From a virus, in the IMG/VR virus record IMGVR_UViG_3300048088_000530, positions 1 through 64,000 of that record: a stretch of 64,000 nt of DNA, one strand, 5' to 3'. The notes under the pieces are model-generated. The model was not told where the DNA came from and made no database searches. It saw only the letters and a list, made by a program, of their open reading frames with translations. Numbering within the stretch: the stretch's first letter is position 1; the number at the start of each line of letters is the position of its first letter. A program made the translations under genes and the position numbers. Below, one piece after another: positions 1-12,670 of this stretch.

Positions 1-22
1 CGATGTGCTTGATTTTGATCAT
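1..22 (-). CDS. Start of a small gene running off the left edge
   Basis: Only the first seven codons (MIKIKHI) are inside the window. The start is supported by the ribosome binding site GGAGCTAAACGCC directly before the ATG, the same site used by several other genes here. That site overlaps the stop codon of the gene upstream (28-231), so the two are probably translated together. Function cannot be judged. Confidence 0.5.
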
Positions 23-27
23 GGCGT

Positions 28-231
28 TTAGCTCCAGTTAGATTCGGTCGCGTCTTCGACGCCTTTTGTCCGGCCTTCTTTCCAGCCCTTCGATGCCTCT
101 TTGTCGAGAGGCCAACCGCGCAGTCCGCAAACGTATCCGCATTTGAACTGCATGAAATAGATGCAATCGCGAGTCTCTTGGATCGAGTCCAAAAACTTCT
201 GCTGCGCTTCGGTCACTTTGAACTTTTTCAT
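28..231 (-). CDS. Small hypothetical protein, 67 aa
   Basis: I do not recognise this protein. It starts MKKFKVTEAQQKFLDSIQ and has two cysteines in the middle (FKCGYVCGL) and a charged C-terminal third. The ATG is preceded by GGAGCTAAACGCCAA, and a good sigma70-like promoter lies just upstream (278-306), so it can be transcribed independently. Its last codons (TGG AGC TAA) form part of the ribosome binding site of the next gene. Confidence 0.7.
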   Translation of the reverse strand: MKKFKVTEAQQKFLDSIQETRDCIYFMQFKCGYVCGLRGWPLDKEASKGWKEGRTKGVEDATESNWS

Positions 232-277
232 TTGGCGTTTAGCTCCGTTTCCGTCACCGGCTGGATGACGTGAAGAG

Positions 278-306
278 ATTATGCCTGACGAGTGTTCACC
301 AGTCAA
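278..306 (-). promoter_or_regulatory. Sigma70-like promoter for the 28-231 gene
   Basis: On the minus strand a TTGACT -35 box (301-306) is followed by a 17-nt spacer and a CATAAT -10 box (278-283). Both are five-of-six matches to the host consensus, and the downstream gene starts about 47 nt after the -10. The bases before the -35 (ATGCTTGACTGG) resemble those at 12618-12630. Confidence 0.65.
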
Positions 307-326
307 GCATTCATCGCGCGAAAGTG

Positions 327-536
327 CTAAATATTTTTGAACGTGTGGTGCGAGCCGTCCTTGTAATACTCCGTCGCGAAGACTTCGCCGCCCTGCTCGT
401 GGACGACGACCGTTCTGGCTGCGGCTCGTTGGCGCGCTACGGTCGGACCTAGCGACGATGCATTGAAAGTCTGGGTGCCGCTCGCGCCGTCCGGCAGATT
501 CCACTTGACGTTAATGGACGATAGTTCTTTTGCCAT
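327..536 (-). CDS. Small hypothetical protein, 69 aa
   Basis: Unrecognised protein starting MAKELSSINVKWNLPDG, with an Arg-rich middle and a C-terminal segment that reads like a short beta structure (ARTVVVHEQGGEVFATEYY). A GGAG lies 12 nt before the ATG, a rather long spacing, so a start within the preceding codons cannot be excluded. It lies between 559-753 and the promoter of 28-231. Confidence 0.6.
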   Translation of the reverse strand: MAKELSSINVKWNLPDGASGTQTFNASSLGPTVARQRAAARTVVVHEQGGEVFATEYYKDGSHHTFKNI

Positions 537-558
537 GGGTTTTATACACTCCAAATCG

Positions 559-753
559 TTACTGGACGGACTTCTTACGACGACCGCGCGCCGGTTTCCG
601 CTCGATTCCCAACTCATCCGCGAGCATGGACACCAGGATCAGCGCGGCCAGGTCCGGTTTCGTCGCGACGTACTCCGCGAAGGAAGTGCGCGGATTATTA
701 CGCGCGGCTTTATAGCTCATATACGCGAGGAAGAGATCAGTTGAGGTGGCCAT
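559..753 (-). CDS. Small hypothetical protein, 64 aa
   Basis: Unrecognised protein (MATSTDLFLAYMSYKAARNN) that looks alpha-helical, with a basic tail (RGRRKKSVQ). The start is fixed by GGAGCTAAACGCCG before the ATG. The promoter and inverted repeat at 776-816 lie just upstream, which suggests it begins its own transcript. Confidence 0.7.
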   Translation of the reverse strand: MATSTDLFLAYMSYKAARNNPRTSFAEYVATKPDLAALILVSMLADELGIERKPARGRRKKSVQ

Positions 754-775
754 CGGCGTTTAGCTCCTAAAGAAA

Positions 776-816
776 GGTGAGCTAGTATCTTAACCGACTA
801 GCTCACCGAAAGTAAA
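776..816 (-). promoter_or_regulatory. Promoter overlapped by an 11-bp inverted repeat
   Basis: The minus strand has TTTACT (811-816), 18 nt, then TAAGAT (787-792), a modest sigma70-like promoter for the 559-753 gene. An 11-bp perfect inverted repeat, GGTGAGCTAGT (776-786) and ACTAGCTCACC (797-807), brackets the -10 box. It could be an operator. It could also act as a terminator for the gene upstream (824-1189), since TTTCTTT follows the hairpin on the minus strand. Confidence 0.5.
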
Positions 817-823
817 GTGATCT

Positions 824-1189
824 TTACGCCGCTTCGATCATCGCAATGACACGATCCGTTTCCGCGATGGCGTCTTTGAGCGCGACGCAGACGTGAACGG
901 CCTTTCCGTGGTCACCGTGACCGTCCACGACTGACGCTGCGACGCTCTCTGCGTCGTTCTTCGTGAAGCGCGTCGCGAGGTGCGGACCGCCAGCAGGCTT
1001 GGGATCGAAGACCTGCTGGCCTTCTACCTTGAATTTGAGCGCGATACCAACGGCGGACACCACGACGAAGCCCTGGCCCAGCAGGACGTTCGAAAGGCCG
1101 TCCAGCGCGGCGACGAGTTCCGCGCGGCTGTTATTGAGAACGGCGAGAACTTCGGCCTTCGTTTCTTTGGCGGATTTTGATTCAGACAT
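824..1189 (-). CDS. Hypothetical protein, 121 aa
   Basis: Unrecognised protein that starts MSESKSAKETKAEVLAVL after a GGAGCTAAAC site two bases from the ATG. It looks mixed alpha/beta: an N-terminal helix, a hydrophobic strand-like stretch (GQGFVVVSAVGIALKFKVEG), a His/Asp-rich turn (VVDGHGDHGKAVHV) and a C-terminal helix. A longer reading frame upstream would cross the promoter, so the MSES start is preferred. Confidence 0.7.
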   Translation of the reverse strand: MSESKSAKETKAEVLAVLNNSRAELVAALDGLSNVLLGQGFVVVSAVGIALKFKVEGQQVFDPKPAGGPHLATRFTKNDAESVAASVVDGHGDHGKAVHVCVALKDAIAETDRVIAMIEAA

Positions 1190-1195
1190 GTTTAG

Positions 1196-1257
1196 CTCCT
1201 GGTCGGTGTTCACTGCATCAGAGACTCTATTATCTTTGATATCCGACCAGGAGTAAA
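1196..1257 (-). promoter_or_regulatory. Promoter with an 11-bp inverted repeat reaching the ribosome binding site
   Basis: The minus strand carries TTTACT (1252-1257), a 17-nt spacer and GATAAT (1229-1234), a plausible promoter for 824-1189. An exact 11-bp inverted repeat, CTCCTGGTCGG at 1196-1206 and CCGACCAGGAG at 1243-1253, joins the promoter spacer to the Shine-Dalgarno GGAG. Because one arm lies upstream of the expected transcript start, it fits a DNA operator pair better than an RNA hairpin. Confidence 0.55.
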
Positions 1258-1298
1258 GCACTTTGTGAACTTCTTTGACGTAGGTGATTACGCCGACA

Positions 1299-1640
1299 TT
1301 ACGAAAGCGCCAGACGGCTCCGAACGTCTTCCAGCAGTCGACGAATCTCCACCGTGCGTTGAACGGCTCGCTGCAACTCTTCGACGGCCTGCGGAACGGC
1401 CTGAACCGCTTCTACTTCGCCACGGCCATCGCCCTTCGGATAGGGCGGATGCGCCACACCGGCCAGAGCGTCTTCCAGCTGCGACGCGGATTTCTCCAAC
1501 TCGTTCAATTCGACGTGGAGCGCGGCTGTCTGACCGTACACCGTGTTTGCAAACTTGGTGCTGTCCGAAAACGTTGCGGCGTCGATCCCGTTTGGACGGC
1601 GATCCACATCACCAGTAAACCCTCTCGTTGCTGCTCCCAT
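1299..1640 (-). CDS. Hypothetical coiled-coil protein, 113 aa
   Basis: Unrecognised protein (MGAATRGFTGDVDRRPNG) with two helical heptad-like stretches around residues 45-60 and 80-108 separated by a Pro/Gly loop (AHPPYPKGDGRG). It probably forms a helical hairpin or oligomer. GGAG sits ten bases before the ATG; codons further upstream would overlap the 1660-1809 gene. Confidence 0.65.
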   Translation of the reverse strand: MGAATRGFTGDVDRRPNGIDAATFSDSTKFANTVYGQTAALHVELNELEKSASQLEDALAGVAHPPYPKGDGRGEVEAVQAVPQAVEELQRAVQRTVEIRRLLEDVRSRLALS

Positions 1641-1659
1641 GAATCTCTCCTTCGTTGAA

Positions 1660-1809
1660 CTACACATTAAAGAACTTTGCCGCGCGTTTCTTATCAGCGA
1701 GCGACGTTCCAAAGAACCGCTCAAGCTGCTTTAGAGAGCGGATGACGACGATGCGTGACGCAATCGGATGAACCGGTGGCGGACGCTTAGTGATGCGACG
1801 GACTTTCAT
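1660..1809 (-). CDS. Small basic protein, 49 aa
   Basis: Begins MKVRRITKRPPPVHPIAS and is strongly basic, ending FFNV. Its ATG overlaps the stop codon of 1806-1967 (ATGA), the usual sign of coupled translation, which is the main reason for calling it. No family is recognised; the charge would suit nucleic-acid or host-protein binding, but that is a guess. Confidence 0.6.
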   Translation of the reverse strand: MKVRRITKRPPPVHPIASRIVVIRSLKQLERFFGTSLADKKRAAKFFNV

Positions 1810-1967
1810 GGGTGCAACCGACGAAGGACTTCAGTCAGCTTCTTGTCGATGCTTTGGACGGCAGTCAGCGAGGTTGCACCGTGCACGTATTGCTCATGGG
1901 CTTTGCGCAACTTCCCGCGAAGTATGTCTGCCTGCCTCTCCAGGGCGCGACGTTGGCTTTCGTTCAT
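1806..1967 (-). CDS. Small helical protein, 53 aa
   Basis: MNESQRRALERQADILRG and the rest is almost wholly charged helix, so a short coiled coil is likely. GGAGCTAGGAAT before the ATG sets the start, and this site lies in the last codons of the HNH gene upstream (ATGA overlap at 1964-1967). An upstream ATG at 2006 is possible but lacks such a site. Confidence 0.65.
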   Translation of the reverse strand: MNESQRRALERQADILRGKLRKAHEQYVHGATSLTAVQSIDKKLTEVLRRLHP

Positions 1968-2344
1968 ATTCCTAGCTCCATTTGCTTCACCGGCATATCC
2001 GGCCATTCATAGTGGCCCTTCTGGGCGTTCGGTTTCCAGTGGACCACGCGCATGTTGTAATCGACGTGAAGCCCACTTACGATGTTTGCGCCGTTGTACT
2101 TACCAATCAACGGCACGATGTGATCGACCACGTGCAACTCGCCGGTCAACTTCGTCAGGCGGCGCGCTTCGTTGTACAGCGCTCGTATCGCCTTCCGATC
2201 TGCCCAAGGCGGTCTACGGCGACGTTCCTGGGCGCGACGTACTTGGCCCTGCTTGCCGTGCGGCCTGGCCAACGGTCGCTGCTTAACGATGACGAAGAGC
2301 GGACCCGCGTGCGATCCGCCAGTCAAATTAAGAGCGAGGTTCAT
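1964..2344 (-). CDS. HNH-family endonuclease, 126 aa
   Basis: A small HNH nuclease. After a basic N-terminal half (RPHGKQGQVRRAQERRRR), the fold begins at about residue 50 (WADRKAIRALYNEARRLTK). The core follows as HVVDHIVPL and, after a loop, VSGLHVDYNMRVVHWKPNAQK, the usual spacing of the metal-binding His-Asp-His and Asn residues. HNH enzymes in phages act in DNA packaging, as homing nucleases or in host-DNA attack. This one sits among small early-type genes away from terminase, so its role is open. Its start overlaps the small membrane protein upstream by 17 nt. Confidence 0.75.
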   Translation of the reverse strand: MNLALNLTGGSHAGPLFVIVKQRPLARPHGKQGQVRRAQERRRRPPWADRKAIRALYNEARRLTKLTGELHVVDHIVPLIGKYNGANIVSGLHVDYNMRVVHWKPNAQKGHYEWPDMPVKQMELGI

Positions 2345-2459
2345 TTGCGCCCGGTTCCGAATCGACCCAGCGCAGAATCTTGCCGATAGCGAGCGAGAGC
2401 ACGAAAGAAAGGCCGATCCAGCCAGCGAAAAACTTGATGCCAAATTCAAGCGGACTCAT
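2328..2459 (-). CDS. Small membrane protein, 43 aa
   Basis: Begins MSPLEFGIKFFAGWIG and has one long hydrophobic segment to about residue 28, followed by a charged tail. It should be a single-pass inner-membrane protein. GAGG lies seven bases before the ATG, and the 3' end overlaps the HNH gene. Too small to identify by sequence. Confidence 0.6.
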   Translation of the reverse strand: MSPLEFGIKFFAGWIGLSFVLSLAIGKILRWVDSEPGANEPRS

Positions 2460-2468
2460 ATTCAAACC

Positions 2469-2636
2469 TCAGTGATGGTTGTAAGGCAGCTTAAGGTCGG
2501 CGTAATGGTTGCAGGCGACATTCAGACAACCGCCAGGACCAATAATGCCATAGAAGTGAAAGATGACCCAGGCGCGACAGCATGAGTATCCTTTCGCGTC
2601 CCAATGGAGCGCAATCGAGTTTCCGAAGTCATCCAT
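2469..2636 (-). CDS. Small Cys-containing protein, 55 aa
   Basis: Starts MDDFGNSIALHWDAKG and carries four cysteines (SCCRAW, GGCLNVAC) plus several His, so metal binding is possible. The start has GGAG seven bases upstream and overlaps the end of the 2629-2952 gene. Function unknown. Confidence 0.6.
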   Translation of the reverse strand: MDDFGNSIALHWDAKGYSCCRAWVIFHFYGIIGPGGCLNVACNHYADLKLPYNHH

Positions 2637-2952
2637 GTTCGTACTCCATAACTTGTTGATCCGGGTCGATGAAGAAGTCAGCGTCACCGTATGACCGCTG
2701 CGTTCCGTCAGCGCGGAACCAGCAGCGCAGCGAACCTTTCCGATGCATCGCGCCAGTCATGTTACCGGCCCAAGAATATCCGCTGCACATACAGCCCATC
2801 GCCCGCGTATTGCGTCGATTCATCCACGCGTCCACTCTAAATGAACGCTTGCCACACACTCGGCACTGGGGCACGAAAAGGTACTGATCAGGGTGCTGCT
2901 TCAGCACGCGGCGAGTATCGCAATGGCGACAACGGCAATGAACACGGCTCAC
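2629..2952 (-). CDS. Cysteine-rich zinc-binding protein, 107 aa
   Basis: The first 60 residues contain CxCxxC (CRCRHC), CRVCGK and CMC clusters with nearby His, the look of a small zinc ribbon with two metal sites. The remainder (RCWFRADGTQRSYGDADF) reads like a compact beta domain. No named family is recognised. The operon position suggests an early protein that may bind nucleic acid or a host factor. Confidence 0.65.
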   Translation of the reverse strand: MSRVHCRCRHCDTRRVLKQHPDQYLFVPQCRVCGKRSFRVDAWMNRRNTRAMGCMCSGYSWAGNMTGAMHRKGSLRCWFRADGTQRSYGDADFFIDPDQQVMEYEHG

Positions 2953-3137
2953 TTTCTAACGTCCTTGGCTTGTGCTGGTCTACGCACAAATTCTACTTCT
3001 GCCGGGTGTAGGTAGCTCGCACACAGAGTACGTTTGTTGATAATAAAAATGAGGTCCAGGCGTTCGAATACGCACAAGACCTCACACGGCGACTCTTCGT
3101 GCTTGACGATGTCGCTAGGCTTTAGCGCGATCTTCAA
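2949..3137 (-). CDS. Small hypothetical protein, 62 aa, probable TTG start
   Basis: The frame is open further upstream, but the protein reads naturally from a TTG codon (MKIALKPSDIVKHEESPCEV) with GGAG four bases before it. It looks like a small beta-barrel protein. It overlaps the end of 3115-3522 by 23 nt and the start of the next gene by four. Confidence 0.55.
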   Translation of the reverse strand: MKIALKPSDIVKHEESPCEVLCVFERLDLIFIINKRTLCASYLHPAEVEFVRRPAQAKDVRK

Positions 3138-3522
3138 GAAACTCCCGAAGGTGCTTTGCGATAACACCATTGCCCATTGACTCGCACAGCGATGCAGCCG
3201 CTCCGATTGCGCAAATCTTTTCGTTGGACGGCGGAACCATCAGCTGAGAAATGTCCAGACCATCAGCCAGGCCGCGTGCATATCCGGTTTCCTCAGCACG
3301 ACGCGCGGCCTGCCGTCCTTCGCACTCTGCCTTGTGGATCGCACGGTGCAAGTCGGAGTCTTCCGCATCGCACAACTCAACTCGCCGCTCCATCTCACGG
3401 AACTTCGCGATGTTTATTTGGCATGCAGGTTCGTGCATCTGGCTCGATCCGAAATGCTCGCGCGCAGAGAGCAGGTCATAGAATATTTCATCACAGTGGA
3501 AGCAACGCCATTGCTTGGCCAT
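3115..3522 (-). CDS. C2H2-type zinc finger protein, 135 aa
   Basis: The N-terminus (MAKQWRCFHCDEIFYDLLSA) followed by HFGSSQMHEPAC forms a single Cys2His2-like finger, the kind found in small phage proteins of unknown role. Residues 45-85 are a charged helix. A C-terminal region has a Gly-rich turn and ends in REFLEDRAKA. AGGA lies eight bases before the ATG. Nucleic-acid binding is likely but not proven. Confidence 0.65.
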   Translation of the reverse strand: MAKQWRCFHCDEIFYDLLSAREHFGSSQMHEPACQINIAKFREMERRVELCDAEDSDLHRAIHKAECEGRQAARRAEETGYARGLADGLDISQLMVPPSNEKICAIGAAASLCESMGNGVIAKHLREFLEDRAKA

Positions 3523-3523
3523 A

Positions 3524-3766
3524 TCAAATTCCTGTGCAGTTGACGACCGCGTACGGACGCTTGATGACGATAGGGAAGAACTCAGGCAGCACGTCAATCG
3601 GCTGCACGTCCTGGTTTCGAAGCGCGCGATCATACGCAACAGCGTGCAACGCGATCCTGAACAACGAGTCTGCCTTCATCGCTGGAAGACCTTCGCGGTG
3701 CGCCTTGACCCAGTGCTGACGATGGACGTGGATGAGGTTGGCGGGAAATCTGACGGAAGTCCGCAT
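3524..3766 (-). CDS. Hypothetical protein, 80 aa
   Basis: MRTSVRFPANLIHVHRQH, followed by a mixed sequence without recognisable motifs. The start overlaps the stop of 3766-4008 (TGATG), and the stop lies one base before the start of the zinc-finger gene. Called on gene packing and plausible composition. Confidence 0.6.
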   Translation of the reverse strand: MRTSVRFPANLIHVHRQHWVKAHREGLPAMKADSLFRIALHAVAYDRALRNQDVQPIDVLPEFFPIVIKRPYAVVNCTGI

Positions 3767-4008
3767 CACGCATCCACGTCATCAAAGATTGATCGGGACA
3801 CCGAACCATCCGGCTTGATTGCCATCATCGTGCCGTCGCTCGTGAAGTAGGTCAGCCGACCTTGCTCCTGCGCCAAGCGCTTCTCGCACTCGTCATAGAT
3901 GGCTGCAGCCTTCTTACGGTCGCCGTCTTCCAGCGCAGCGTACAGCTGAGAGCCTGGTGCCGCCCAAGTATCTTTGAACCGTTTGCAAGTGGCGTGATTA
4001 ACCGGCAT
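3766..4008 (-). CDS. Hypothetical protein, 80 aa
   Basis: MPVNHATCKRFKDTWAAPG, with a charged helical middle (DRKKAAAIYDECEKRLAQEQ) and a strand/turn C-terminus (YFTSDGTMMAIKPDGSV). AAGGGG lies upstream of the ATG. It overlaps both neighbours by a few bases. No family recognised. Confidence 0.65.
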   Translation of the reverse strand: MPVNHATCKRFKDTWAAPGSQLYAALEDGDRKKAAAIYDECEKRLAQEQGRLTYFTSDGTMMAIKPDGSVSRSIFDDVDA

Positions 4009-4312
4009 TGCTGGTCCCCTTCATGCGCTTCTTCGCAGCGTCCATCAGCGCGGCTGTGGCGGCGCGGATATCCTGCTGGTTGTCAGCGATCACGACCGCA
4101 CCAACGCGCTTCGCCTTATTCGACACTGCCTTATTGCCGACAGCACGCTCCAGCGCACGGATATAGTCCACGGCGTGCTTCAGCACTTCACGCGTTTCGT
4201 TTGACACGCCGTTTTCATCGCGAAGGTCCAGAAGAGCCTTGGCAACGTGCACCGGCTTGCCGACGCGCTTGGTGGCGATCTTGGCGGATTGGAAATCGAA
4301 TGTCTGTGGCAT
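3998..4312 (-). CDS. Hypothetical helical protein, 104 aa
   Basis: MPQTFDFQSAKIATKRVG, then a largely helical protein rich in Lys, Ala and Val. The ATG is immediately after the stop of 4315-4707. A GTG two codons earlier is an alternative start. No family recognised. Confidence 0.65.
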   Translation of the reverse strand: MPQTFDFQSAKIATKRVGKPVHVAKALLDLRDENGVSNETREVLKHAVDYIRALERAVGNKAVSNKAKRVGAVVIADNQQDIRAATAALMDAAKKRMKGTSNAG

Positions 4313-4314
4313 GT

Positions 4315-4707
4315 TCACTTACCGTTTGCGAGTTGTTCAAGTGCCGCTTTGAATCCTTCTTCGCCGTTCGCGTCAGGGAAGTGCGACTTGAGCGCGACCA
4401 TCACCTGATCGACGGACAGCCCACCTTGGCGCTTGTGGTTCCGAAGTTCACAGTTGGCGTAGTCTTCCGCTTCGGCAACGGCGTCCAAGTACGCCTGACC
4501 TTTGGGCGGATTCTGCGCGGCCATTAGTTCGCGCTCCAGAACATCAATCGGGTTCGCGCCCAGGCCAAGGTTCAGACCGAAGCCGCGCGTGACTTGGAGT
4601 TCACGAATCTCGTGCCCGTGTCCGTTCAACGCATTGATGATCATCGTAAGCGCGTGGGCGTTGACTTCGACGCGCTCTGGAAGAGGTCTGCTGTACTTGG
4701 TAGTCAT
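4315..4707 (-). CDS. Hypothetical protein, 130 aa
   Basis: MTTKYSRPLPERVEVNAH, with a first half reading as helix-loop-helix (ALTMIINALNGHGHEIREL) and a C-terminal half with EF-like acidic turns and a helix ending LEQLANGK. AAAAGG lies upstream of the ATG. The terminator at 4745-4774 separates it from 4840-5145, so it may depend on read-through. Confidence 0.65.
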   Translation of the reverse strand: MTTKYSRPLPERVEVNAHALTMIINALNGHGHEIRELQVTRGFGLNLGLGANPIDVLERELMAAQNPPKGQAYLDAVAEAEDYANCELRNHKRQGGLSVDQVMVALKSHFPDANGEEGFKAALEQLANGK

Positions 4708-4744
4708 TCTGTGTGTATCCTTTTCACTGCCTAGTTAAAAAGAA

Positions 4745-4774
4745 GGGCGCAGAAACCGGTCCTGGTCTGCGCCC
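4745..4774 (-). terminator. Rho-independent terminator, probably bidirectional
   Basis: A 9-bp stem, GGGCGCAGA (4745-4753) with TCTGCGCCC (4766-4774), and a 12-nt loop. On the minus strand it is followed by TTCTTTTT, on the plus strand by TTTTC. It should end the transcript of 4840-5145. Confidence 0.8.
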
Positions 4775-4839
4775 TTTTCAACGGGGGTTCGCAATCCGCA
4801 GACTGCGATTTAATTCTAACTGCAAGCGGTGACGAAAAG

Positions 4840-5145
4840 TTAAACTGCGCCCGCGCTTTTTAGAATGTCGTCTTCCGACCGCAGCTTGCCTTCCGAGTCG
4901 ATCCAGGCCACTTCGTCGCCTTTCTGAATGGACACCGCGCATCGCTTCTCCTTGGCGTTTGCGACGATAGAGCGAGCCGACCAGCCTTGATCGCCTGCGA
5001 CCTTGAGAGCGGTCGCTTGCGCTTCGGTCATGTAACGGGGTGCGGCGGCGCGGATACGCTTCTGCTGAACAGAGGCGCGCTTACTTTTCGAAGTCGGAAC
5101 GCCTGTAACGCGAAGGACTTCACGTGCGGTCGTTTGAGCAATCAT
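4840..5145 (-). CDS. Hypothetical basic protein, 101 aa
   Basis: MIAQTTAREVLRVTGVPTS, then a Lys/Arg-rich linker and a helical region (YMTEAQATALKVAGDQGW) that could be helix-turn-helix-like, followed by a small strand-rich tail (CAVSIQKGDEVAWIDSEGKL). GAAAGGAG is eight bases before the ATG. A 153-bp upstream gap with TATACT-like hexamers may hold its promoter, but no good -35 is visible. Confidence 0.65.
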   Translation of the reverse strand: MIAQTTAREVLRVTGVPTSKSKRASVQQKRIRAAAPRYMTEAQATALKVAGDQGWSARSIVANAKEKRCAVSIQKGDEVAWIDSEGKLRSEDDILKSAGAV

Positions 5146-5298
5146 GACATACTCCTTTCGGTCTAGTAGGTTGAAGTTCGTTTTTCTTTCCAGCGATTTG
5201 AGTATAAGCGACTAAACAGCAAAATACTAGACACTGTGGAAGAAGAAAACACCTAGAAGGAGTATAGCAGTAACGTGCGGTAACGAACGGTCAGGCGT

Positions 5299-5670
5299 TC
5301 ACATGACCTTATCTGACTTTGGAAAGAGAACGTTCATATTGCGAACGAAGCGCAGATGCTGGTTGCCTATCTTGCGATAGCCGTCAGCCGTACGCTCGAA
5401 AGCGCTGCGAGAGTCGGCCTGGAAAGTTCGGCTGGCCGCTTTCTTCTCCATCTCATTCGCTCGTCGGCTGTACTCGTGGTATTGGTCGAAGTGCCACTGA
5501 CGAAGTTCGCGAAGGGCGGACAAATCCTCACCCTTCGGACCTGCGGAAACCTGGAGAAGTTCTTGGGACTCACGGACTGCCGCGCTGGAATCGCGGTGTC
5601 CGTGGCCAAGGAGAAGAGCAGCTGCGGCAGTGAGGCGGTCGGAGAGCGTTACGAGAAGTGCTGTGTTCAT
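5299..5670 (-). CDS. Hypothetical helical protein, 123 aa
   Basis: MNTALLVTLSDRLTAAAALL, then a mainly helical charged protein (HFDQYHEYSRRANEMEKKAA) with likely coiled-coil parts. The start overlaps the stop of 5670-5825. The opposite strand is also open here, but lacks a start site with a ribosome binding site and conflicts with the operon. Confidence 0.65.
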   Translation of the reverse strand: MNTALLVTLSDRLTAAAALLLGHGHRDSSAAVRESQELLQVSAGPKGEDLSALRELRQWHFDQYHEYSRRANEMEKKAASRTFQADSRSAFERTADGYRKIGNQHLRFVRNMNVLFPKSDKVM

Positions 5671-5825
5671 CAGTTGCGAGGGAGTAGCTGGAGTTCGAAG
5701 AAGCGTTCACGCCAGGCTTTGAGCGCGGCGTCCAAACACGGACGGATTTTCAGGATGCCGCAACCTCTGACGATGTATTCGCCGGTTGACGGAACGAAGA
5801 TTGCGCGCGGCTTAACTGTCTGCAT
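5670..5825 (-). CDS. Small hypothetical protein, 51 aa
   Basis: MQTVKPRAIFVPSTGEYIVR, a short sequence with strands followed by a helix (CLDAALKAWRERFFELQLL). AAAGGAAGCC precedes the ATG and the gene overlaps its neighbours at both ends. The pattern suggests a small soluble accessory protein; no family is recognised. Confidence 0.6.
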   Translation of the reverse strand: MQTVKPRAIFVPSTGEYIVRGCGILKIRPCLDAALKAWRERFFELQLLPRN

Positions 5826-5970
5826 GGCTTCCTTTGGTGTAGTAGTTGGGCTTGACCCAGATGCCGATAACGCGAAGTGCACCCATGCCAAGAAGGCCAC
5901 CGAAGACGAGTGTAAGCATGGCGCTGTCCATTTCTGTGAGAACGTCGACAATTGCGGAAAGGGTGTTCAC
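5812..5970 (-). CDS. Small membrane protein, 52 aa
   Basis: Starts at a GTG with AGGAG five bases before it (MNTLSAIVDVLTEMDSAM). One hydrophobic segment follows (LTLVFGGLLGMGALRVIGIW) with a short polar tail, so it should be a single-pass inner-membrane protein. It overlaps the next gene by 14 nt. Function unknown. Confidence 0.6.
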   Translation of the reverse strand: MNTLSAIVDVLTEMDSAMLTLVFGGLLGMGALRVIGIWVKPNYYTKGSHADS

Positions 5971-6022
5971 GATAACTCCTGGGTCTGGAAGGGAAGAGCC
6001 GAAGCCCTTCCTATCTTACGCG

Positions 6023-6889
6023 TTATTCAGCGTCGATTGCGACGATGCTGAAGACGTACTTCTTGCCGTTCTGTTCGAAGGTTTCGCTACCACCGCTGAT
6101 GCGATGGGCTTCCTTCAGACGCAGACGGAAACGGATATGTTTGTTGTCCGGCAGACGCAGCGCGCGGAAGGCTTCGCGAGTCGATTTGAAGGTGCCAACT
6201 TCCTTGCCTTCCAATTCGACCTTTACGCCGTCGCGAGTCAGACGCGCTTCGCGAACTTCGGAGTCAGCCCAGCTGGCCGCGACTCCATCGCTGTTCGAAG
6301 CCTTCGAACCGGACGACTTAACGGCGGGCTTCGGTTCGCTGCCTTGCTTCTCGTTGATCGCCTGGAGCGTCGTCTGGAGAAGGTTGAAGGCGTTGTGACT
6401 CTTCGCGGAACGCTGAGCCGAACCTTCTTCGTCATCTTCGTCGGTTTCGTCTTCAGCTTCCTCACCCGAACCGACGACCGGCGCGTTGTTCGGGACTTCC
6501 GACGCACCTTCGTTTTCGAGCGCTTCCGCTGCTGCGCGCTCTTCGTTCGTCGGCGCGTCGGACGGTTCCAGGTTGAGCGGCGAGCCGTCCATATCCGATT
6601 CCGGCGCGGCTTCGTTGGGCTTTTGGTCGTCCGTAGCTGCGCCGTCCGCGCCGGTCGATTCCTGGGTGTCCGTTTCGTCGGCATCCGGGTTGGGGATGAA
6701 CCCTTCAGGCGTTTCGAGTTCCGGGAAGTGGGAAGCGATCTTTTCTGCCAGGTCCGTCACGCGCTTTTCTGCGCTCTTTCGGTCGGCGAAGCGCTTGATT
6801 TCCTTTCCGTCAGCGAGCATGACGGCGTGCTTGTTGAAGTAGGCGAGAAGCTGAGCGGTGGTGGCTTCGGAGATAGCGATGGTGTTCAT
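6023..6889 (-). CDS. Three-part protein with acidic linker, 288 aa
   Basis: Residues 1-65 form a helical N-terminal domain (ISEATTAQLLAYFNKHAVML). Residues 66-165 are very acidic and low-complexity (DETDTQE, EDETDEDDEEG). A C-terminal domain after residue 200 begins SWADSEVREARLTRDGV and ends VFSIVAIDAE. Acidic linkers of this kind occur in DNA-mimic and chaperone-like proteins, but no family is clear. GGAGCCGTAAA precedes the ATG and a strong promoter lies upstream at 6952-6980, so this is the first gene of the leftward block and likely well expressed. Confidence 0.75.
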   Translation of the reverse strand: MNTIAISEATTAQLLAYFNKHAVMLADGKEIKRFADRKSAEKRVTDLAEKIASHFPELETPEGFIPNPDADETDTQESTGADGAATDDQKPNEAAPESDMDGSPLNLEPSDAPTNEERAAAEALENEGASEVPNNAPVVGSGEEAEDETDEDDEEGSAQRSAKSHNAFNLLQTTLQAINEKQGSEPKPAVKSSGSKASNSDGVAASWADSEVREARLTRDGVKVELEGKEVGTFKSTREAFRALRLPDNKHIRFRLRLKEAHRISGGSETFEQNGKKYVFSIVAIDAE

Positions 6890-6951
6890 TTTACGGCTCC
6901 TTTCTAGGTCTTTCTGGGTTTCGCGCTTCGTTTCGTTCAGCGCATGAGAGG

Positions 6952-6980
6952 ATTATGAAGCACGAAACCGCAGATGGCAA
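6952..6980 (-). promoter_or_regulatory. Strong sigma70-like promoter for the leftward block
   Basis: On the minus strand TTGCCA (6975-6980), exactly 17 nt, then CATAAT (6952-6957); each box has five of six consensus bases. TTTGTGA-type motifs just upstream (near 6987 and 7009) recur near other promoters of this window. Drives 6023-6889. Confidence 0.7.
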
Positions 6981-7102
6981 CAGATATTTGTGAGCGAAGT
7001 GAAGAAGTTTGTGAAAGAATTTCTATCAGCCGGCAGAAGTGATAGTCCACCCATGCCACCGAACCGCTAGAATAACGCGAACAACCATGGAACACTAGCG
7101 CA

Positions 7103-8716
7103 ATGGCCTTACCACTTCGCGTACCAGACGACTACAACGCGCCGCTTCCAGCAGCGTATTATGACCCAGAAAGGCTGGAAGTCTATCGTTCACTGAACGA
7201 AGCGCGCTTTGCCGCGACGGTCGCGGCGAACGACGAAGAACTGCCGATGTATTCGCTGAATCCGGCGCTTCGCGACTTCTGGGAAACCGAAGCGCGGTAC
7301 AAGGTATTGTACGGCGGTCGCGGCTCGTCCAAGTCCCACGATGCCGCTGGCCACGCGGTGTTCCTCGCGGCCAACTACACGGTCAAGATACTCTGCGCCC
7401 GACAATTCCAGAACCGCATCAGCGAGTCCGTATACACGCTGATCAAGGACAAGATCAACGCTTCGCCGTATCGTAACGAATTTGAGATTCTAAAGACGTC
7501 CATTCGTCACCGGCGAACCGGGTCTGAGTTTTTGTTCTACGGTATCGCGCGCAACCTGGAAGAAATTAAGTCAACGGAAGGCGTGGACATTCTCTGGCTG
7601 GAAGAAGCGCACTATTTGAACCAAGAGCAGTGGGAAGTTATTGAGCCGACGATCCGTAAAGAAGGCGCGCAGGTTTGGCTGATCTTTAACCCGGATGAGT
7701 ACACTGACTTTGTGTACCAGAATTTCGTCGTCAATCCGCCAGCCGATACGGTCAGCCGCGAGATTAACTGGCAAGACAATCCTTACCTCTCGATCACCAT
7801 GCTGAAGGTGATCTACAACTATTACAAGCGCGAGCCGGAAAGCGCAAGGCACGTGTACGGCGGCGAACCGAAGATGGGCGCGGACAAGTCGATCATCCCA
7901 CTCAAGTACATAATAGCGGCTGTGGACGCCCACCTGCCGAAGTACGGTTGGCAGAACGTACCGGAAGGGCTCACTGGGCTTGATCTGGTCAAGTGGAAGG
8001 TAGAGCACCTAAACAATCCGAAGTTCCACGTATGCGTGTGGCCTGGCTGGGATATGGGCGGCGTGCACGCGGTTGGATATGACGTAGCCGATGACGGCGA
8101 CGACAAGAACGCGTTGGTGGAGTCGTGGGGCAATATCGTTCTGCACGCTGAAGAGTGGCAGGGACTAGAAGACCAGATCATCAAATCGGCCACGAAGGTC
8201 TACAACCACGCGGTAACGACCAACTCACAGATCGTCTGGGACTCCATCGGCGTCGGCGCGTTCGTCGGCTCTAAGTTCGCTGAGCTCAACGACGCCCAGA
8301 AGCGCAAGATCATTTACGAGCCGTTCAACGCTGGCGGCGCGGTGATGGATCCAAAGGGCGCGTACATGGTCTTTCCGCACGTGACGATCACTAACGGCGA
8401 GCACTTCTCGAACATTAAAGCGCAGATGTGGGATGAGGTTGCGGTGCGCTTTCGGAAGACCTATGAGGCGATTACTTTCGGAACGCCGCACCCGAAGCAC
8501 GAGTTGATTAGTCTGAACTCGAAGACGCTTGGGAATATGGTGGACAAGATCAAGATGGAACTCGCCGCGCCTCACAAATCGACAGACCGTATGGGCAAGT
8601 TCAAGGTGGAGAGTAAAGACGACTTGAGGGACCGTGGTATCAAGTCGCCTAACGTTGCGGATGCTTTAATTATGTCCCTGATCCGCCCGAAGCGTGCTGC
8701 TGCGACTTTCTTTTGA
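7103..8716 (+). CDS. terL: Terminase large subunit
   Basis: The packaging motor ATPase and headful or site-specific nuclease. Residues 71-78 hold a Walker A motif (GGRGSSKS), and residues 162-168 a Walker B with catalytic Glu (DILWLEE). The C-terminal RNase H-like nuclease is indicated by YDVADDGDDKNAL, WDSIGVGAFVG and a late Asp in NVADALIMSL. At 537 aa it has the usual length. It stands alone on the plus strand between two leftward blocks. No small subunit could be recognised beside it. GGAA lies upstream of the ATG but the ribosome binding site is weak. Confidence 0.95.
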   Translation: MALPLRVPDDYNAPLPAAYYDPERLEVYRSLNEARFAATVAANDEELPMYSLNPALRDFWETEARYKVLYGGRGSSKSHDAAGHAVFLAANYTVKILCARQFQNRISESVYTLIKDKINASPYRNEFEILKTSIRHRRTGSEFLFYGIARNLEEIKSTEGVDILWLEEAHYLNQEQWEVIEPTIRKEGAQVWLIFNPDEYTDFVYQNFVVNPPADTVSREINWQDNPYLSITMLKVIYNYYKREPESARHVYGGEPKMGADKSIIPLKYIIAAVDAHLPKYGWQNVPEGLTGLDLVKWKVEHLNNPKFHVCVWPGWDMGGVHAVGYDVADDGDDKNALVESWGNIVLHAEEWQGLEDQIIKSATKVYNHAVTTNSQIVWDSIGVGAFVGSKFAELNDAQKRKIIYEPFNAGGAVMDPKGAYMVFPHVTITNGEHFSNIKAQMWDEVAVRFRKTYEAITFGTPHPKHELISLNSKTLGNMVDKIKMELAAPHKSTDRMGKFKVESKDDLRDRGIKSPNVADALIMSLIRPKRAAATFF

Positions 8717-8846
8717 CGTTTGGATCGTCGTCAATCTTCACTACACAGTCAATCTTTCCTGTATGGTCCAGGAATAGCTTGACTGTGGCGATGAGACCGA
8801 TGGCCGTTGTTACGCTCTCCTGAATGAATTGCTGGGACGCGGACAC
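8670..8846 (-). CDS. Small protein, 58 aa, antisense to the terL 3' end
   Basis: Starts at a GTG with AAGGAG nine bases before it (MSASQQFIQESVTTAIGLIA), has a mildly hydrophobic helix, an acidic KIDDDPN turn and a basic tail. The last 47 bases overlap the terminase gene on the opposite strand. It is the most downstream gene of the leftward 12.5-8.7 kb block. Called mainly on its ribosome binding site. Confidence 0.5.
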   Translation of the reverse strand: MSASQQFIQESVTTAIGLIATVKLFLDHTGKIDCVVKIDDDPNVKRKSQQHASGGSGT

Positions 8847-8851
8847 GGTTA

Positions 8852-9010
8852 CTACTCCTTAGCGGGTGGGGTTGGCGGTTGATCTGGGGAAGTGATGAAG
8901 CCGATGAATAGAACCACCAGCCAGAAAATGGCAGCTGCTGTCTTTACGTCGCTCGCGTTGGAGCAGAAGAAGACGAGACAGATGAAGACAAGACACGCTG
9001 CGAATTCCAT
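8852..9010 (-). CDS. Small two-helix membrane protein, 52 aa
   Basis: MEFAACLVFICLVFFCSN, a short polar link and a second hydrophobic segment (AAAIFWLVVLFIGFIT), with a Pro-rich tail. Two membrane passes are expected. GGAGG is close before the ATG. Holins can look like this, but a better holin exists at 43195-43452, so the role is open. Its stop overlaps the ribosome binding site of 8670-8846. Confidence 0.6.
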   Translation of the reverse strand: MEFAACLVFICLVFFCSNASDVKTAAAIFWLVVLFIGFITSPDQPPTPPAKE

Positions 9011-9025
9011 GCAGCCTCCAAGCAG

Positions 9026-9065
9026 TGGTACACCAAGAATTGTACTATTAATCCTTGGTGTACCA
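9026..9065. repeat. 12-bp perfect inverted repeat between two membrane-protein genes
   Basis: TGGTACACCAAG (9026-9037) and CTTGGTGTACCA (9054-9065) with a 16-nt loop. It lies 15 bases upstream of the 8852-9010 start, with no T-run after it on either strand. It fits an mRNA-stabilising or translation-controlling hairpin, or an operator, better than a terminator. Confidence 0.6.
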
Positions 9066-9075
9066 TTCGGCAGAC

Positions 9076-9315
9076 TCAGGTGTTCGAGACCCAAATAATT
9101 GCGAGAGCCACGATGAGTCCGGCAAGCGCTAATCCCCAGCGACCGGCCTGGGCGGCGCGTTGCGCGTCTTCCCAAACGTCACGCCGGATAGTAACGAACG
9201 GCGACTTGTCACGCGGCGTATCCACGAACGGGACGCCTTTGATGGTGCCCTTCGGCGGCGGAACGTCGCGCGGCGACTCGTGCTTCAGAAAACCATCCCA
9301 GACACGGCGCGTCAT
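9076..9315 (-). CDS. Tail-anchored membrane protein, 79 aa
   Basis: MTRRVWDGFLKHESPRDV, a polar 55-residue head and a single C-terminal transmembrane helix (GLALAGLIVALAIIWV). Start overlaps the stop of 9312-9530 (ATGA). Probably cytoplasmic domain in, C-terminus out. Unrecognised. Confidence 0.65.
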   Translation of the reverse strand: MTRRVWDGFLKHESPRDVPPPKGTIKGVPFVDTPRDKSPFVTIRRDVWEDAQRAAQAGRWGLALAGLIVALAIIWVSNT

Positions 9316-9530
9316 AGCTTGATCCTCAGTGCGCGCTCCTTCTCCTTGTCGCGTTTCGGCAGCGGTGCCCATGCGATGAAGTGATCGCGCGTTGCGTTGG
9401 TAATCGAACCCAGGACGGCAACGCCGCCTTGATTCAGAAGGATACACTTAACACCAGGTCGCAGAGCGGACATGTCATAGTCATACTCGCTGACGGCTGC
9501 GGTGATGTACGTCTTCGCCTGATCCTTCAC
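9312..9530 (-). CDS. Hypothetical protein, 72 aa
   Basis: Starts at a GTG inside the stop region of the lipoprotein gene (MKDQAKTYITAAVSEYDYDM), followed by a small beta-rich body (PGVKCILLNQGGVAVLGSI) and a basic tail. Called on coupling between two well supported genes. Confidence 0.65.
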   Translation of the reverse strand: MKDQAKTYITAAVSEYDYDMSALRPGVKCILLNQGGVAVLGSITNATRDHFIAWAPLPKRDKEKERALRIKL

Positions 9531-9916
9531 TTCGCAACTTCCTTCGTGGCGCGACCGGCTTCCATGATCGGCAGACCGGCTTCGGTCGGCACGTAGATGA
9601 TCTGGTTCTTGGTGTCCTGCAGCGTCTGGATGTACAGATAGCGCAGATATCCTTCGGGACCGCCAAGGCCGTCAGCGACGATCTTGTTTGCCGCAGCAAC
9701 GCCGCGAGCGCGGATGACTTCGGCGTTGGCCAAGTGCTGCGCGGACTCTTCAGCCGCGATGGCTTCTTGGACCTTGACCTGCTTCGACGCGTTGGCCTTT
9801 GCCAGTTCCGCTTCGCCGTCCATCTTCTGCTGGTACACGTGGTACGGCGGATACATGTCGCAGCCGGACATTGCGAAGGTGGACATTACTGCAACTGCGA
9901 TCAGAATACGTTTCAT
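9527..9916 (-). CDS. Prohibitin-like (SPFH C-terminal) lipoprotein, 129 aa
   Basis: A signal peptide with a lipobox (FAMSGC, Cys at 19) predicts a lipid-anchored envelope protein. Residues 35-80 form a charged helix (AELAKANASKQVKVQEAIAA), and the C-terminus (GYLRYLYIQTLQDTKNQIIY) matches the tail of prohibitin/stomatin proteins, where the helix drives ring assembly. The SPFH body itself is missing, so this is a short form. Neighbours on both sides are small membrane proteins, which suggests an envelope-directed gene group. GGAG lies upstream of the ATG. Confidence 0.75.
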   Translation of the reverse strand: MKRILIAVAVMSTFAMSGCDMYPPYHVYQQKMDGEAELAKANASKQVKVQEAIAAEESAQHLANAEVIRARGVAAANKIVADGLGGPEGYLRYLYIQTLQDTKNQIIYVPTEAGLPIMEAGRATKEVAK

Positions 9917-9932
9917 TCGTACTACTCCTTAG

Positions 9933-10505
9933 TTAGCGCGGGCGTACCGCTGGTGAATTTGCGCCGCTTTCTTCGGCGTGCTTAGGATCGTACCTGCCCA
10001 TGATGTAGTCAGGGCGACGCTGGTCTGGCTGTGGGCACGCGGCGATGATGCGCCACCCGTTGTCCAGTTCCGTCTGGAGCGCGTCGCTGCACATATCCTG
10101 GAGAAGCATCACGCGGTTGAAGAGCATCAGGCCCATACCGGGCGTGTACACTTCGACCTTCTCGTTGAACATGTTGTTGGTCACGTCCGGCACCGAACTG
10201 GCGAAGCGCGCGACCTTCTCTGCTGCCGCGTTTATGACTTCAGCCGCGCGCATCAGCGTGTCTTCCGATACCCTGATGGAAGACGAAACGGTCACCGATT
10301 CTCCACTCGTCATAAGGTCTGCCAGCTGACCTTCTGTGATGGCGATAGGGATGGCCCTGGTCAGGTCTTCAACGTCCACGTCGATGCCGACTTTCGCAAG
10401 AACGGCTCGACGCCTCTCAACCTTCGCAATCCGCTCGCGATCTTTCTTTTCTTCGTCATCGCCCCAGATGTAGATTGAATCCAGCTGCGCGTTAAGAATT
10501 CTCAT
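9933..10505 (-). CDS. Hypothetical protein, 190 aa
   Basis: MRILNAQLDSIYIWGDDEEK, a charged start, then a helical middle (DTLMRAAEVINAAAEKVARF) and a C-terminal part with DNGWRIIAACPQ, a pattern like the small DUF4177-type fold that binds in the order strand-helix-strand. Whether the family is truly present needs a profile search. It follows 10508-11278 directly. Confidence 0.6.
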   Translation of the reverse strand: MRILNAQLDSIYIWGDDEEKKDRERIAKVERRRAVLAKVGIDVDVEDLTRAIPIAITEGQLADLMTSGESVTVSSSIRVSEDTLMRAAEVINAAAEKVARFASSVPDVTNNMFNEKVEVYTPGMGLMLFNRVMLLQDMCSDALQTELDNGWRIIAACPQPDQRRPDYIMGRYDPKHAEESGANSPAVRPR

Positions 10506-10507
10506 GA

Positions 10508-11278
10508 TTAGTCATCCAAACGTTTGATGATTTCGATTTTCTGGCCGTCGATATATCCGGCAGTCCGTGCGCGTTCGTTCTCCACCTGCGACTCGTAATC
10601 AGCAACGGATGAACTCTTGCTCTTTTTCGTGTATTCTACGTCACCGAACTTCTCGTTGACAGCAGCAGTCTTGACGACGACCAGCGCGTTGCCAGAAGAG
10701 TAGGTGAGCGCTTCACGCGCTTCCGTCATTTCACGGAACTTGGCGCAGAGAACTCGCGCGGCAGCGGCCTTATATTCGCCGCCGATCCGAACGCTGTAAC
10801 GGCCAGGATAGTTCTCCTGCATGTACTTCTTGCAGAGCGCGTCGATGTTTGCGCAAAGGTTGTCGAACATCATCTTGGCCAGTTCAACGTCGCGCTTGTA
10901 TCCGCGAAAGACGGCCTTCTTGCCAAACTTCTTCGTCCGTCCACCGCCAAGTTTGTCGTTTTGATTCTGCTTGGACTCCATCTTGTAGTCCATCCGCGCC
11001 TCATAGAAAACCGACTGGCAATCGTTGTACGCTGCGACCGCGACAGAAAGTATGTCCATGTGGTACGGCATCGCGGCGAAGGCCCGCGTTACATCGACCT
11101 CACCGAAGACGTCAGGCGCGGCGTCCTTGATGTCGTATTCGTCCAGCTGGTACTTGTCCATCATAGCGCGAGCGCGCTGGGCTGCAATCGCCGCCTCATT
11201 GGGGCTGGATGCGTCCTTGGCCATCGAGAGAAGCTTGGCGATGCGCTCTTTGATCTTGTCTAACTGTTCGCGTTCCAC
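10508..11278 (-). CDS. DUF2786-type protein, 256 aa
   Basis: The N-terminus (KIKERIAKLLSMAKDASSPN, then EAAIAAQRARAMMDKYQLDE) is a clear DUF2786 helical domain. The rest fits the region that commonly follows it (DUF7168-like: AVAAYNDCQSVFY, FRGYKRDVELAKMMFDNLCA). Such proteins are common in phages and have no proven function. The gene follows 11336-12259 in the same direction and is one of the larger early proteins. Confidence 0.75.
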   Translation of the reverse strand: MEREQLDKIKERIAKLLSMAKDASSPNEAAIAAQRARAMMDKYQLDEYDIKDAAPDVFGEVDVTRAFAAMPYHMDILSVAVAAYNDCQSVFYEARMDYKMESKQNQNDKLGGGRTKKFGKKAVFRGYKRDVELAKMMFDNLCANIDALCKKYMQENYPGRYSVRIGGEYKAAAARVLCAKFREMTEAREALTYSSGNALVVVKTAAVNEKFGDVEYTKKSKSSSVADYESQVENERARTAGYIDGQKIEIIKRLDD

Positions 11279-11335
11279 TTTCTATTCCTTTCTGAGTCCG
11301 TATCAGGCGCGACTATTCTGCCGCGCCTCAATGAC

Positions 11336-12259
11336 TTAACCAAAGAAGTTATCAGCGCAGATCGGGCCAATGCCGCGCTCAATCGAATCCGGGTCCGTCA
11401 AGGTCCGCGAGCAGATCGAGCAAACGCCGAATTCCTTCCCGAACGCGATGGCCGCTTGTTCCGGGTCGGCGCACGCGGCGAGAACGGCCTTTGCGCGGTC
11501 TTCGCTGCAGTCGTATGACTTCTGGAACTTGTCGTTGGCGATCTTGCCCAGATACGTGCCTTCGTCGTCCTTGACGTAGACTGCACCCGCGTTTTTGCCT
11601 GTGTCCGGTGCGCGGGAGAACGTCAGCTTTTGGCCAAGGCCCAGCAGCTTCATCTTCGGCTTCTGAACACCCTTGCTACGGGCACGAGCGAACGACGCCG
11701 TAACAGACGAGATATTGACGACCGGCGCGGCTGCAACATCAGCGGCGCGCTGGGTTTCCTTCGCCGTCTTCGCCGCGCTGAATTTCTCTGCGCAACGTAG
11801 CGCCGCAGCGAGTTGGCCAGCGGTCAGGTTTCCGTACTGCATGACCTTTTCGCGCAGATCAATGGCGAACGGAAAGGTGCTGCCGGTCCACCACACAGAC
11901 ACTGTCGGGTTGTCGCGTTCGAACTCTGCGAGGTTGGCGGCGCGCTTCGCTTCCTTCCGGTTCGCGGCCTTGATCTTGTTCGCGTCGCGGACGGCCTTCG
12001 GCGTCTTGAAGGTGAGAACGCCCTTGCCATCGCATTGGTAGCACTTCCCGGCTTCGCGGAAAGCGTACGCGCCGATGTAGCCTTGGCCACGGCATTTCGA
12101 GCAAGGCTCGCTATAGAGCGTTTCGGCGCGGTCGGTCGGCTCGCGCTTCTCAAACTTCTTGTTCTTCGGCATCTTTGCGAGTTCAGCGGCGCTGGGGACG
12201 TATCCCAGATCGTCGTCCTGGAAGTCTTCGAAACCGGTGTTGGACGTAGCGAGGTTCAT
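11336..12259 (-). CDS. Protein with DnaJ-type zinc repeats and a C-terminal Cys cluster, 307 aa
   Basis: At residues 50-82 two CxxCxGxG repeats (CSKCRGQG, CYQCDGKG) form a DnaJ-like zinc finger. The middle is basic and helical. The last 30 residues (CSICSRTLTDPDSIERGIGP) match the DUF6011-type zinc motif. It could hold nucleic acid or act on protein folding; no J domain is present, so it is not a co-chaperone of the usual kind. Starts after GGAGCTAAACGCC, the shared ribosome binding site. Confidence 0.75.
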   Translation of the reverse strand: MNLATSNTGFEDFQDDDLGYVPSAAELAKMPKNKKFEKREPTDRAETLYSEPCSKCRGQGYIGAYAFREAGKCYQCDGKGVLTFKTPKAVRDANKIKAANRKEAKRAANLAEFERDNPTVSVWWTGSTFPFAIDLREKVMQYGNLTAGQLAAALRCAEKFSAAKTAKETQRAADVAAAPVVNISSVTASFARARSKGVQKPKMKLLGLGQKLTFSRAPDTGKNAGAVYVKDDEGTYLGKIANDKFQKSYDCSEDRAKAVLAACADPEQAAIAFGKEFGVCSICSRTLTDPDSIERGIGPICADNFFG

Positions 12260-12315
12260 GGCGTTTAGCTCCTTTGGTTATCTTAGTTGCCGCGAATAAA
12301 CGCGGTGCAGGTCAC

Positions 12316-12549
12316 TTAAGCGCGGCCAGATTCGCGCGGATTCTTTCCGTTTTTGTCAAACAAAAAAATCTTCCCTTCGGCGACGCAGAAGAGTGGGAAT
12401 CCTTCGGCCCAGACCGACTCGACGCGCGATGCCTTCGTTTTCGGAGCGATCTTACCGAACGACTCGATTGCCGATTTCAATTGATCGGCCTTCATCTGAA
12501 GAATGTTGTACAGCATGTACGTATCACCAGCGATTTCGTAAGTCTTCAT
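12316..12549 (-). CDS. Small hypothetical protein, 77 aa
   Basis: MKTYEIAGDTYMLYNILQMK, helix then a strand-rich C-terminus (WAEGFPLFCVAEGKIFLFDK). First gene of the leftward 12.5-8.7 kb block, with promoter 12594-12623 and GGAGCTAAACGCC before the ATG. Function unknown. Confidence 0.7.
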   Translation of the reverse strand: MKTYEIAGDTYMLYNILQMKADQLKSAIESFGKIAPKTKASRVESVWAEGFPLFCVAEGKIFLFDKNGKNPRESGRA

Positions 12550-12593
12550 GGCGTTTAGCTCCGTTCAGTCAGTTATTCGTACAACGTGAGAGA

Positions 12594-12623
12594 ATCTTAA
12601 CCTGAGAGTAATCCGCCAGGCAA
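12594..12623 (-). promoter_or_regulatory. Promoter for the leftward 12.5 kb block
   Basis: Minus strand TTGCCT (12618-12623), 18 nt, TAAGAT (12594-12599). The -35 context GTGCTTGCCTGG resembles that at 301-306. Weaker than the promoter at 6952-6980 but placed the same way. Confidence 0.5.
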
Positions 12624-12640
12624 GCACTTTTGCGTCACTT

Positions 12641-12670
12641 TTGTGAACTTTCTGAATATCTTTTGATAAT
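12641..12670 (+). promoter_or_regulatory. Promoter for the virion operon
   Basis: Plus strand TTGTGA (12641-12646), 18 nt, GATAAT (12665-12670), with the portal ATG only 13 nt after the -10, so the leader would be very short. The -35 lies inside a TTTGTGAACTTTCT sequence that also occurs near 1262. Confidence 0.5.

What the first reader, a model, noticed from the sequence alone, without database searches (positions are those of the whole stretch)
1..12623. Family of promoter plus RBS cassettes for small leftward genes
Genes starting at 22, 231, 753, 1189, 12259 and 12549 share GGAGCTAAAC(GCC) before the start, and 1967 a variant. Several have their own promoter: TTGACT-17-CATAAT, TTTACT-18-TAAGAT, TTTACT-17-GATAAT, TTGCCA-17-CATAAT, TTGCCT-18-TAAGAT. 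TTTGTGAACTT-like motifs recur near 1262 and 12640, and TTTGTGA near 6987 and 7009. It looks like a modular system in which each accessory gene has a standard expression cassette, easing gene exchange.
Basis: partly seen in the sequence, partly recalled or inferred. Interest (0 to 1): 0.7.

Follow-up and report, generated by a model that had tools for sequence, protein, structure and literature searches.

The report
Repeated start signals joining phage genes
This phage puts one nearly identical "start translating here" signal in front of seven small, mostly unrelated genes, and in related phages genes have been inserted or swapped exactly at that signal, which suggests how phages can exchange accessory genes without breaking their expression.

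Summary
GGAGCTAAAC occurs exactly six times in the window, all leftward and all just before a start codon; shuffled sequence gives zero. A seventh copy lies at 70.92 kb of the same 71.2-kb genome. Five of the seven genes have their own sigma70-like promoter; two do not.

The phage is a BcepF1-/Pbunavirus-related myophage. In close relatives the same 16-mer (GGAGCTAAACGCCATG) recurs and acts as a hinge. One promoter plus signal precedes three unrelated genes in three phages. Homologous genes carry the signal under unrelated upstream DNA. Two phages differ by a clean 219-bp signal-to-signal insertion or deletion. Bacterial genomes hold the 16-mer only at or below chance, so it is not a host ribosome-binding site. 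BcepF1 and Karil-Mokiny-1 use another word (GGAGATAACC); the Pbunavirus tested has none.

It works like the start-associated sequences (SAS/ESAS) of cluster K mycobacteriophages and resembles T4-type promoter-terminator cassettes, but is not shown to be homologous to either. The modular-cassette idea is largely right, but the exchanged unit is signal plus gene, while promoters move separately. That the repeat itself drives recombination is plausible, not shown.

The parts
26..35 (-). start word before gene 22 (the gene runs across the record ends); no promoter of its own; the TAA inside the word (28-30) is the stop codon of gene 231
28..231 (-). 67-aa accessory gene, no Pfam match
237..246 (-). 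start word before gene 231
278..306 (-). promoter TTGACT-17-CATAAT; shares a 25-bp identical stretch with the promoter of gene 70919
559..753 (-). 64-aa accessory gene; 61% identical homologue in G003, also with the word but under an unrelated promoter
758..767 (-). start word before gene 753
768..807 (-). 11-bp inverted repeat with the -10 box TAAGAT (787-792) in its loop, followed by a T-rich stretch: terminator-like promoter hairpin
   Evidence: 0 of 60 shuffles reach the repeat score
787..816 (-). promoter TTTACT-18-TAAGAT of gene 753
824..1189 (-). 121-aa accessory gene; its G003 orthologue (66% identical) lies behind an extra inserted 70-aa gene and has another RBS
1190..1199 (-). start word before gene 1189, directly followed by ATG
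1229..1269 (-). promoter TTTACT-17-GATAAT (1229-1257) with AAAGTGCTT and TTCACAAA upstream; nearly identical in G003 before a different gene
1968..1979 (-). variant word GGAGCTAGGAAT before gene 1967
11336..12259 (-). 307-aa gene, DUF6011 / phrog_4046, the constant neighbour of the variable slot
12263..12272 (-). start word before gene 12259; same word in all eleven slot sequences compared
12316..12549 (-). 77-aa slot gene; replaced by unrelated 60-aa and 90-aa genes in G003 and G042/G002
12553..12562 (-). start word before gene 12549
12594..12647 (-). promoter TTGCCT-18-TAAGAT (12594-12623) with AAAGTGCTT and TTCACAAA upstream, conserved in G002, G003, G042

Best explanation
GGAGCTAAACGCC(ATG) is a lineage-specific start-associated sequence: a Shine-Dalgarno core (GGAG) inside a fixed 10-16-nt word that the phage reuses for a subset of small leftward accessory genes. 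Host-type sigma70 promoters upstream, several with AAAGTGNTT at the -35 and a few folded into a terminator-like hairpin, probably drive them. The word is the hinge of a modular arrangement: genes are gained, lost or replaced as complete [word-gene] units, so an incoming gene brings a working start (and sometimes a stop for its neighbour, through the TAA in the word) and is read from the resident promoter. Shown: the repeats, their position, the exact module borders, and independent reassortment of promoters and genes. Inferred: that the promoters are active, and that recombination between the short identical words, or selection for the standard start after illegitimate recombination, keeps the copies identical and the swaps precise.
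For: Exact repeats before genes only; six of 117 gene starts share the word against at most 3 in column shuffles; same promoter before unrelated genes: G000/G003/G042 slot, G034 against G038; at gene 1189, G003 has an extra gene inserted between the shared promoter+word and the orthologue; same gene with the word under unrelated upstream DNA: 753, 22, 70919, a 64-aa slot gene; clean 219-bp word-to-word insertion or deletion between G034 and G038; upstream 100 nt 71-87% identical while module interiors are at shuffled level; 16-mer at or below chance in 257 Gb of prokaryote genomes.
Against: Two of seven genes have no promoter of their own. Some relatives with 60-65% portal identity lack the word (G006, L014, L018). 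Many of the compared contigs were fetched by the word itself, so its conservation is overstated. Precise borders could also arise by selection alone. No expression data.
Confidence: 0.72

Rival explanations
1. Only a strong ribosome-binding site: the word is an optimal start for this phage and host, fixed by selection for translation; module swapping is ordinary phage mosaicism and the word plays no part in it.
For: GGAG core at normal spacing; the words of G006 and G017 look like plain extensions of Shine-Dalgarno pairing (with knowledge of the 16S 3' end).
Against: CTAAACGCC after GGAG cannot extend pairing with the 16S 3' end, yet it is invariant across diverged genomes, while the other genes of the same phage have variable spacers. 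Not a host RBS.
Confidence: 0.3
2. The word in the mRNA is the target of a phage or host RNA-binding regulator that controls this gene set together, as T4 RegA does for its targets (RegA from my own knowledge).
For: Conservation beyond the Shine-Dalgarno; use restricted to a subset of leftward genes. Pope et al. 2011 left the same option open for SAS.
Against: No candidate regulator identified; the word differs between lineages that keep the same gene block, so a regulator would have to change with it.
Confidence: 0.15
3. Recent duplication of whole gene cassettes (promoter, RBS and gene) followed by divergence.
For: The promoters of genes 231 and 70919 are clearly related.
Against: The seven proteins are not detectably related to one another and the other promoters differ; the word is far more conserved than either flank.
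Confidence: 0.07

Closest known systems
[quoted passage not shown] 2011, PMC3203893; Adephagia 2024, PMC11373665)
   Same: Short asymmetric word with a Shine-Dalgarno core, conserved beyond 16S pairing, before a subset of non-structural genes of different families, one orientation, sometimes holding the upstream gene's stop codon; some copies preceded by an inverted repeat that contains a promoter; repeat type differs between lineages.
   Different: Different sequence (GGGATAGGAGCCC there), unrelated phages of Gram-negative hosts, no common inverted-repeat consensus; here direct comparative evidence that gene modules change exactly at the word.
PeSL promoter-terminator cassettes of T4-type phages (Arbiol 2010; Comeau 2014; originals not held, known and my own knowledge)
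   Same: Regulatory cassettes at gene borders associated with shuffling of small accessory genes; some copies here combine a -10 box with a terminator-like hairpin.
   Different: In PeSL the repeated unit is promoter plus stem-loop; here it is the translation start, and only a minority of copies have the hairpin.
Phage morons (general knowledge)
   Same: Small extra genes, some with their own promoter, inserted between conserved genes.
   Different: Modules share one standard start word, often use the resident promoter and mostly lack a terminator of their own.

Membership tests
SAS-type element (functional kind) | Repeated asymmetric word at translation starts of a subset of non-structural genes, mostly one orientation | tested here: met
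SAS-type element (functional kind) | Conservation beyond pairing with the 16S 3' end | tested here: met
   CTAAACGCC invariant in 25 of 29 distinct sites; the others vary only just before the ATG. Sites were found by the word, so the figure is biased upward
Cluster K SAS/ESAS (as a family) | Consensus GGGATAGGAGCCC and a conserved 17-bp inverted-repeat consensus in ESAS | tested here: not met
   the word is GGAGCTAAACGCC; the inverted repeats found have unrelated arm sequences and occur in a minority of copies (definition)
PeSL (T4-type) | Composite early promoter plus terminator stem-loop at each unit | tested here: not met
   only gene 753 among the seven copies here, and a few in relatives
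BcepF1-/Pbunavirus-type phage | Homologous portal and terminase, with a leftward gene block between them that includes a DUF6011 gene (BcepF1 itself has same-strand small genes there) | tested here: met
Integron-like or site-specific gene cassette | Recombinase and structured attachment site | tested here: inconclusive
   the word is short and asymmetric; the proteins scanned show no recombinase, but the whole genome was not scanned
Active early promoter cassette | Transcription start at the boxes early in infection | not testable with these tools
   needs RNA from infected cells

The most novel reading that the evidence does not exclude
The word is a true gene-capture site: short identical translation starts, kept uniform within each phage lineage by recombination among copies, provide the homology for precise loading of new genes behind resident promoters, and each phage lineage has evolved its own word.
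Probability: 0.25. Interest if true: 0.7.

Novelty: new variant of a known kind. Interest (0 to 1): 0.5.

Why it matters
The function of SAS elements has been unexplained since 2011, and in the papers read here they are described only in mycobacteriophages. An analogous system in unrelated Gram-negative phages, with natural insertions and replacements whose borders fall exactly on the word, suggests a testable role: a standard translation start as the junction for accessory-gene exchange. It also gives a sequence handle for finding new small phage accessory genes.

Tried and rejected
Host RBS: rejected, the 16-mer is at or below chance in 257 Gb. Whole-cassette duplication: the proteins are unrelated. 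TTTGTGAA as a genome-wide motif: not significant. All copies in a promoter-terminator hairpin: only a subset. GAAANNNTTTC palindromes of BcepF1 and Karil-Mokiny-1 as fixed upstream promoter elements: few lie next to TTGAC. Single 16-mer hits in G030, G033, G036, G037, G039, G040, G043, G046: set aside as chance or unrelated because of single copies and unlike surroundings. Pfam gave no function for the small genes. A further search for relatives with the DUF6011 protein added nothing new. The PeSL papers are not held.

Full report
What was checked. The window is the first 64,000 bases of a 71,297-base IMG/VR virus record. The record's two ends repeat 127 bases, so it is a circular or circularly permuted assembly of 71,170 bp. 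GGAGCTAAAC occurs exactly six times in the window and never in 100 shuffles. There are seven distinct copies in the genome, all leftward and all immediately before start codons, at genes 22, 231, 753, 1189, 12259, 12549 and 70919. Among 117 predicted gene starts, six share the 9-mer GGAGCTAAA; column-shuffled controls reach 3 at most. The gene caller was a simple script of mine, so gene numbers are approximate.

Promoters. Five of the seven genes have a sigma70-like promoter whose -10 box ends 33-48 nt before the start. Such boxes alone are not above chance in this region. What makes them credible is position (intergenic gaps of 70-133 nt, against a median of 10 for other leftward genes) and conservation in relatives. 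The genes at 22 and 12259 have the word but no convincing promoter. The word before 22 contains the stop codon of gene 231. AAAGTGCTT overlaps the -35 at 1189, 12549 and 70919 and occurs nowhere else in the genome; a similar AAAGTGTTGAC occurs 5 times in BcepF1 and 4 times in Karil-Mokiny-1 against 0.02-0.03 expected.

Kinship. The portal protein is about 51% identical to that of Burkholderia phage BcepF1 and similar to those of Karil-Mokiny-1 and Pseudomonas Pbunavirus phages. The leftward block between terminase and portal, with a DUF6011 gene near its portal end, is shared out to Pbunavirus USP_1.

Evidence for modules. Between the DUF6011 gene and the portal lies a variable slot. In eleven records the order from the portal is promoter region, then word; in six of them the word is followed by one extra gene and in one by three, each behind its own copy of the word, and finally the word and the DUF6011 gene; in four there is no extra gene. 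G003 and G032 have the same slot sequence, so these are not eleven independent cases. In G000, G003 and G042 the same promoter (71-87% identical over 100 nt) precedes three unrelated genes; the module interiors are no more alike than shuffled DNA, and identity resumes at the next word. G034 and G038 differ by a clean 219-bp insertion or deletion from word to word, with nearly identical flanks. At gene 1189, G003 has the same promoter and word but an extra 70-aa gene before the orthologue of 1189, which there has a different RBS. Conversely, homologous genes carry the word under unrelated upstream DNA: 753, 22, 70919 and a 64-aa slot gene. Promoters and genes thus reassort on either side of the word.

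Specificity. The 16-mer GGAGCTAAACGCCATG was found in 21 stretches of IMG/VR, with the multi-copy contigs in this phage group. It was found in 62 single-copy places in 257 billion bases of bacterial and archaeal genomes, fewer than the roughly 120 expected for a random 16-mer (the expectation is my arithmetic, assuming equal base frequencies). It is therefore specific to a phage lineage. Other lineages have other repeated words: GGAGATAACC in BcepF1 and Karil-Mokiny-1, AGAAAGGAAYAGAA in G006, CTAGAAAGACC in G017. Pbunavirus USP_1, G007 and G034 show no comparable repeated word (no shuffle control was run for USP_1, whose top word had 4 copies). The G006 and G017 words look like extended Shine-Dalgarno sequences; the G000 and BcepF1 words are not explained by that.

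Hairpins. In a minority of copies the -10 box lies inside a significant inverted repeat, followed by a T-rich stretch: gene 753 here, and copies in G045, Karil-Mokiny-1 and BcepF1. These resemble composite promoter-terminators. At 1189 a long inverted repeat pairs the Shine-Dalgarno region with promoter DNA that only a read-through transcript would contain; by inference this could silence translation of read-through mRNA.

Comparison with known systems. Cluster K mycobacteriophages have 11-19 copies of a 13-bp start-associated sequence, conserved beyond 16S pairing and attached to genes of different families, about half of them preceded by inverted repeats that contain SigA-like promoters. The present system works alike but has a different sequence and no common inverted-repeat consensus, so it is not a member of that family. 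T4-type PeSLs are the closest precedent for regulatory cassettes that accompany gene shuffling (the original papers are not held).

Limits. Many relatives were fetched with the 16-mer itself, which inflates its apparent conservation; those found through the portal alone show both presence (G002, G003, G016) and absence (G006, L014, L018). Whether the word promotes recombination, or is merely preserved by selection afterwards, is not decided. There are no expression data.

Noticed in passing
window 1-127 and record 71171-71297: The record has an exact 127-bp terminal repeat although it is listed as having no end repeats; several related records (G006, G034, G039) also show exactly 127 bp, which looks like an assembler k-mer overlap, so these genomes are probably complete circles.
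   Followed up: partly
window about 12685-12735; relatives at the portal start: TATCGCGCGTATCTTA (its reverse complement in the portal direction) is conserved near the predicted portal start in several relatives. Most portal homologues align only from about residue 24, so the annotated start at 12683 may be too early and the conserved stretch may be a rightward promoter or operator.
   Followed up: partly
BcepF1 and Karil-Mokiny-1 (L063, L064, L097, L098): The palindrome GAAATNATTTC recurs many times in both genomes (exact AAATGATTTC 9 and 13 times), which also encode a ParB-like protein; it may be an operator or partition site.
   Followed up: partly
G039 (L093-L096): GAATTCCAGCGTCGTGG-type repeats occur up to 14 times, several just before gene starts; the record hit the 16-mer once, probably by chance.
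   Followed up: no
window 12683-15121: The portal protein carries a C-terminal domain (residues about 675-805) shared with many large phage proteins in PHROGs, including a DarB-like antirestriction family and an endolysin family.
   Followed up: no
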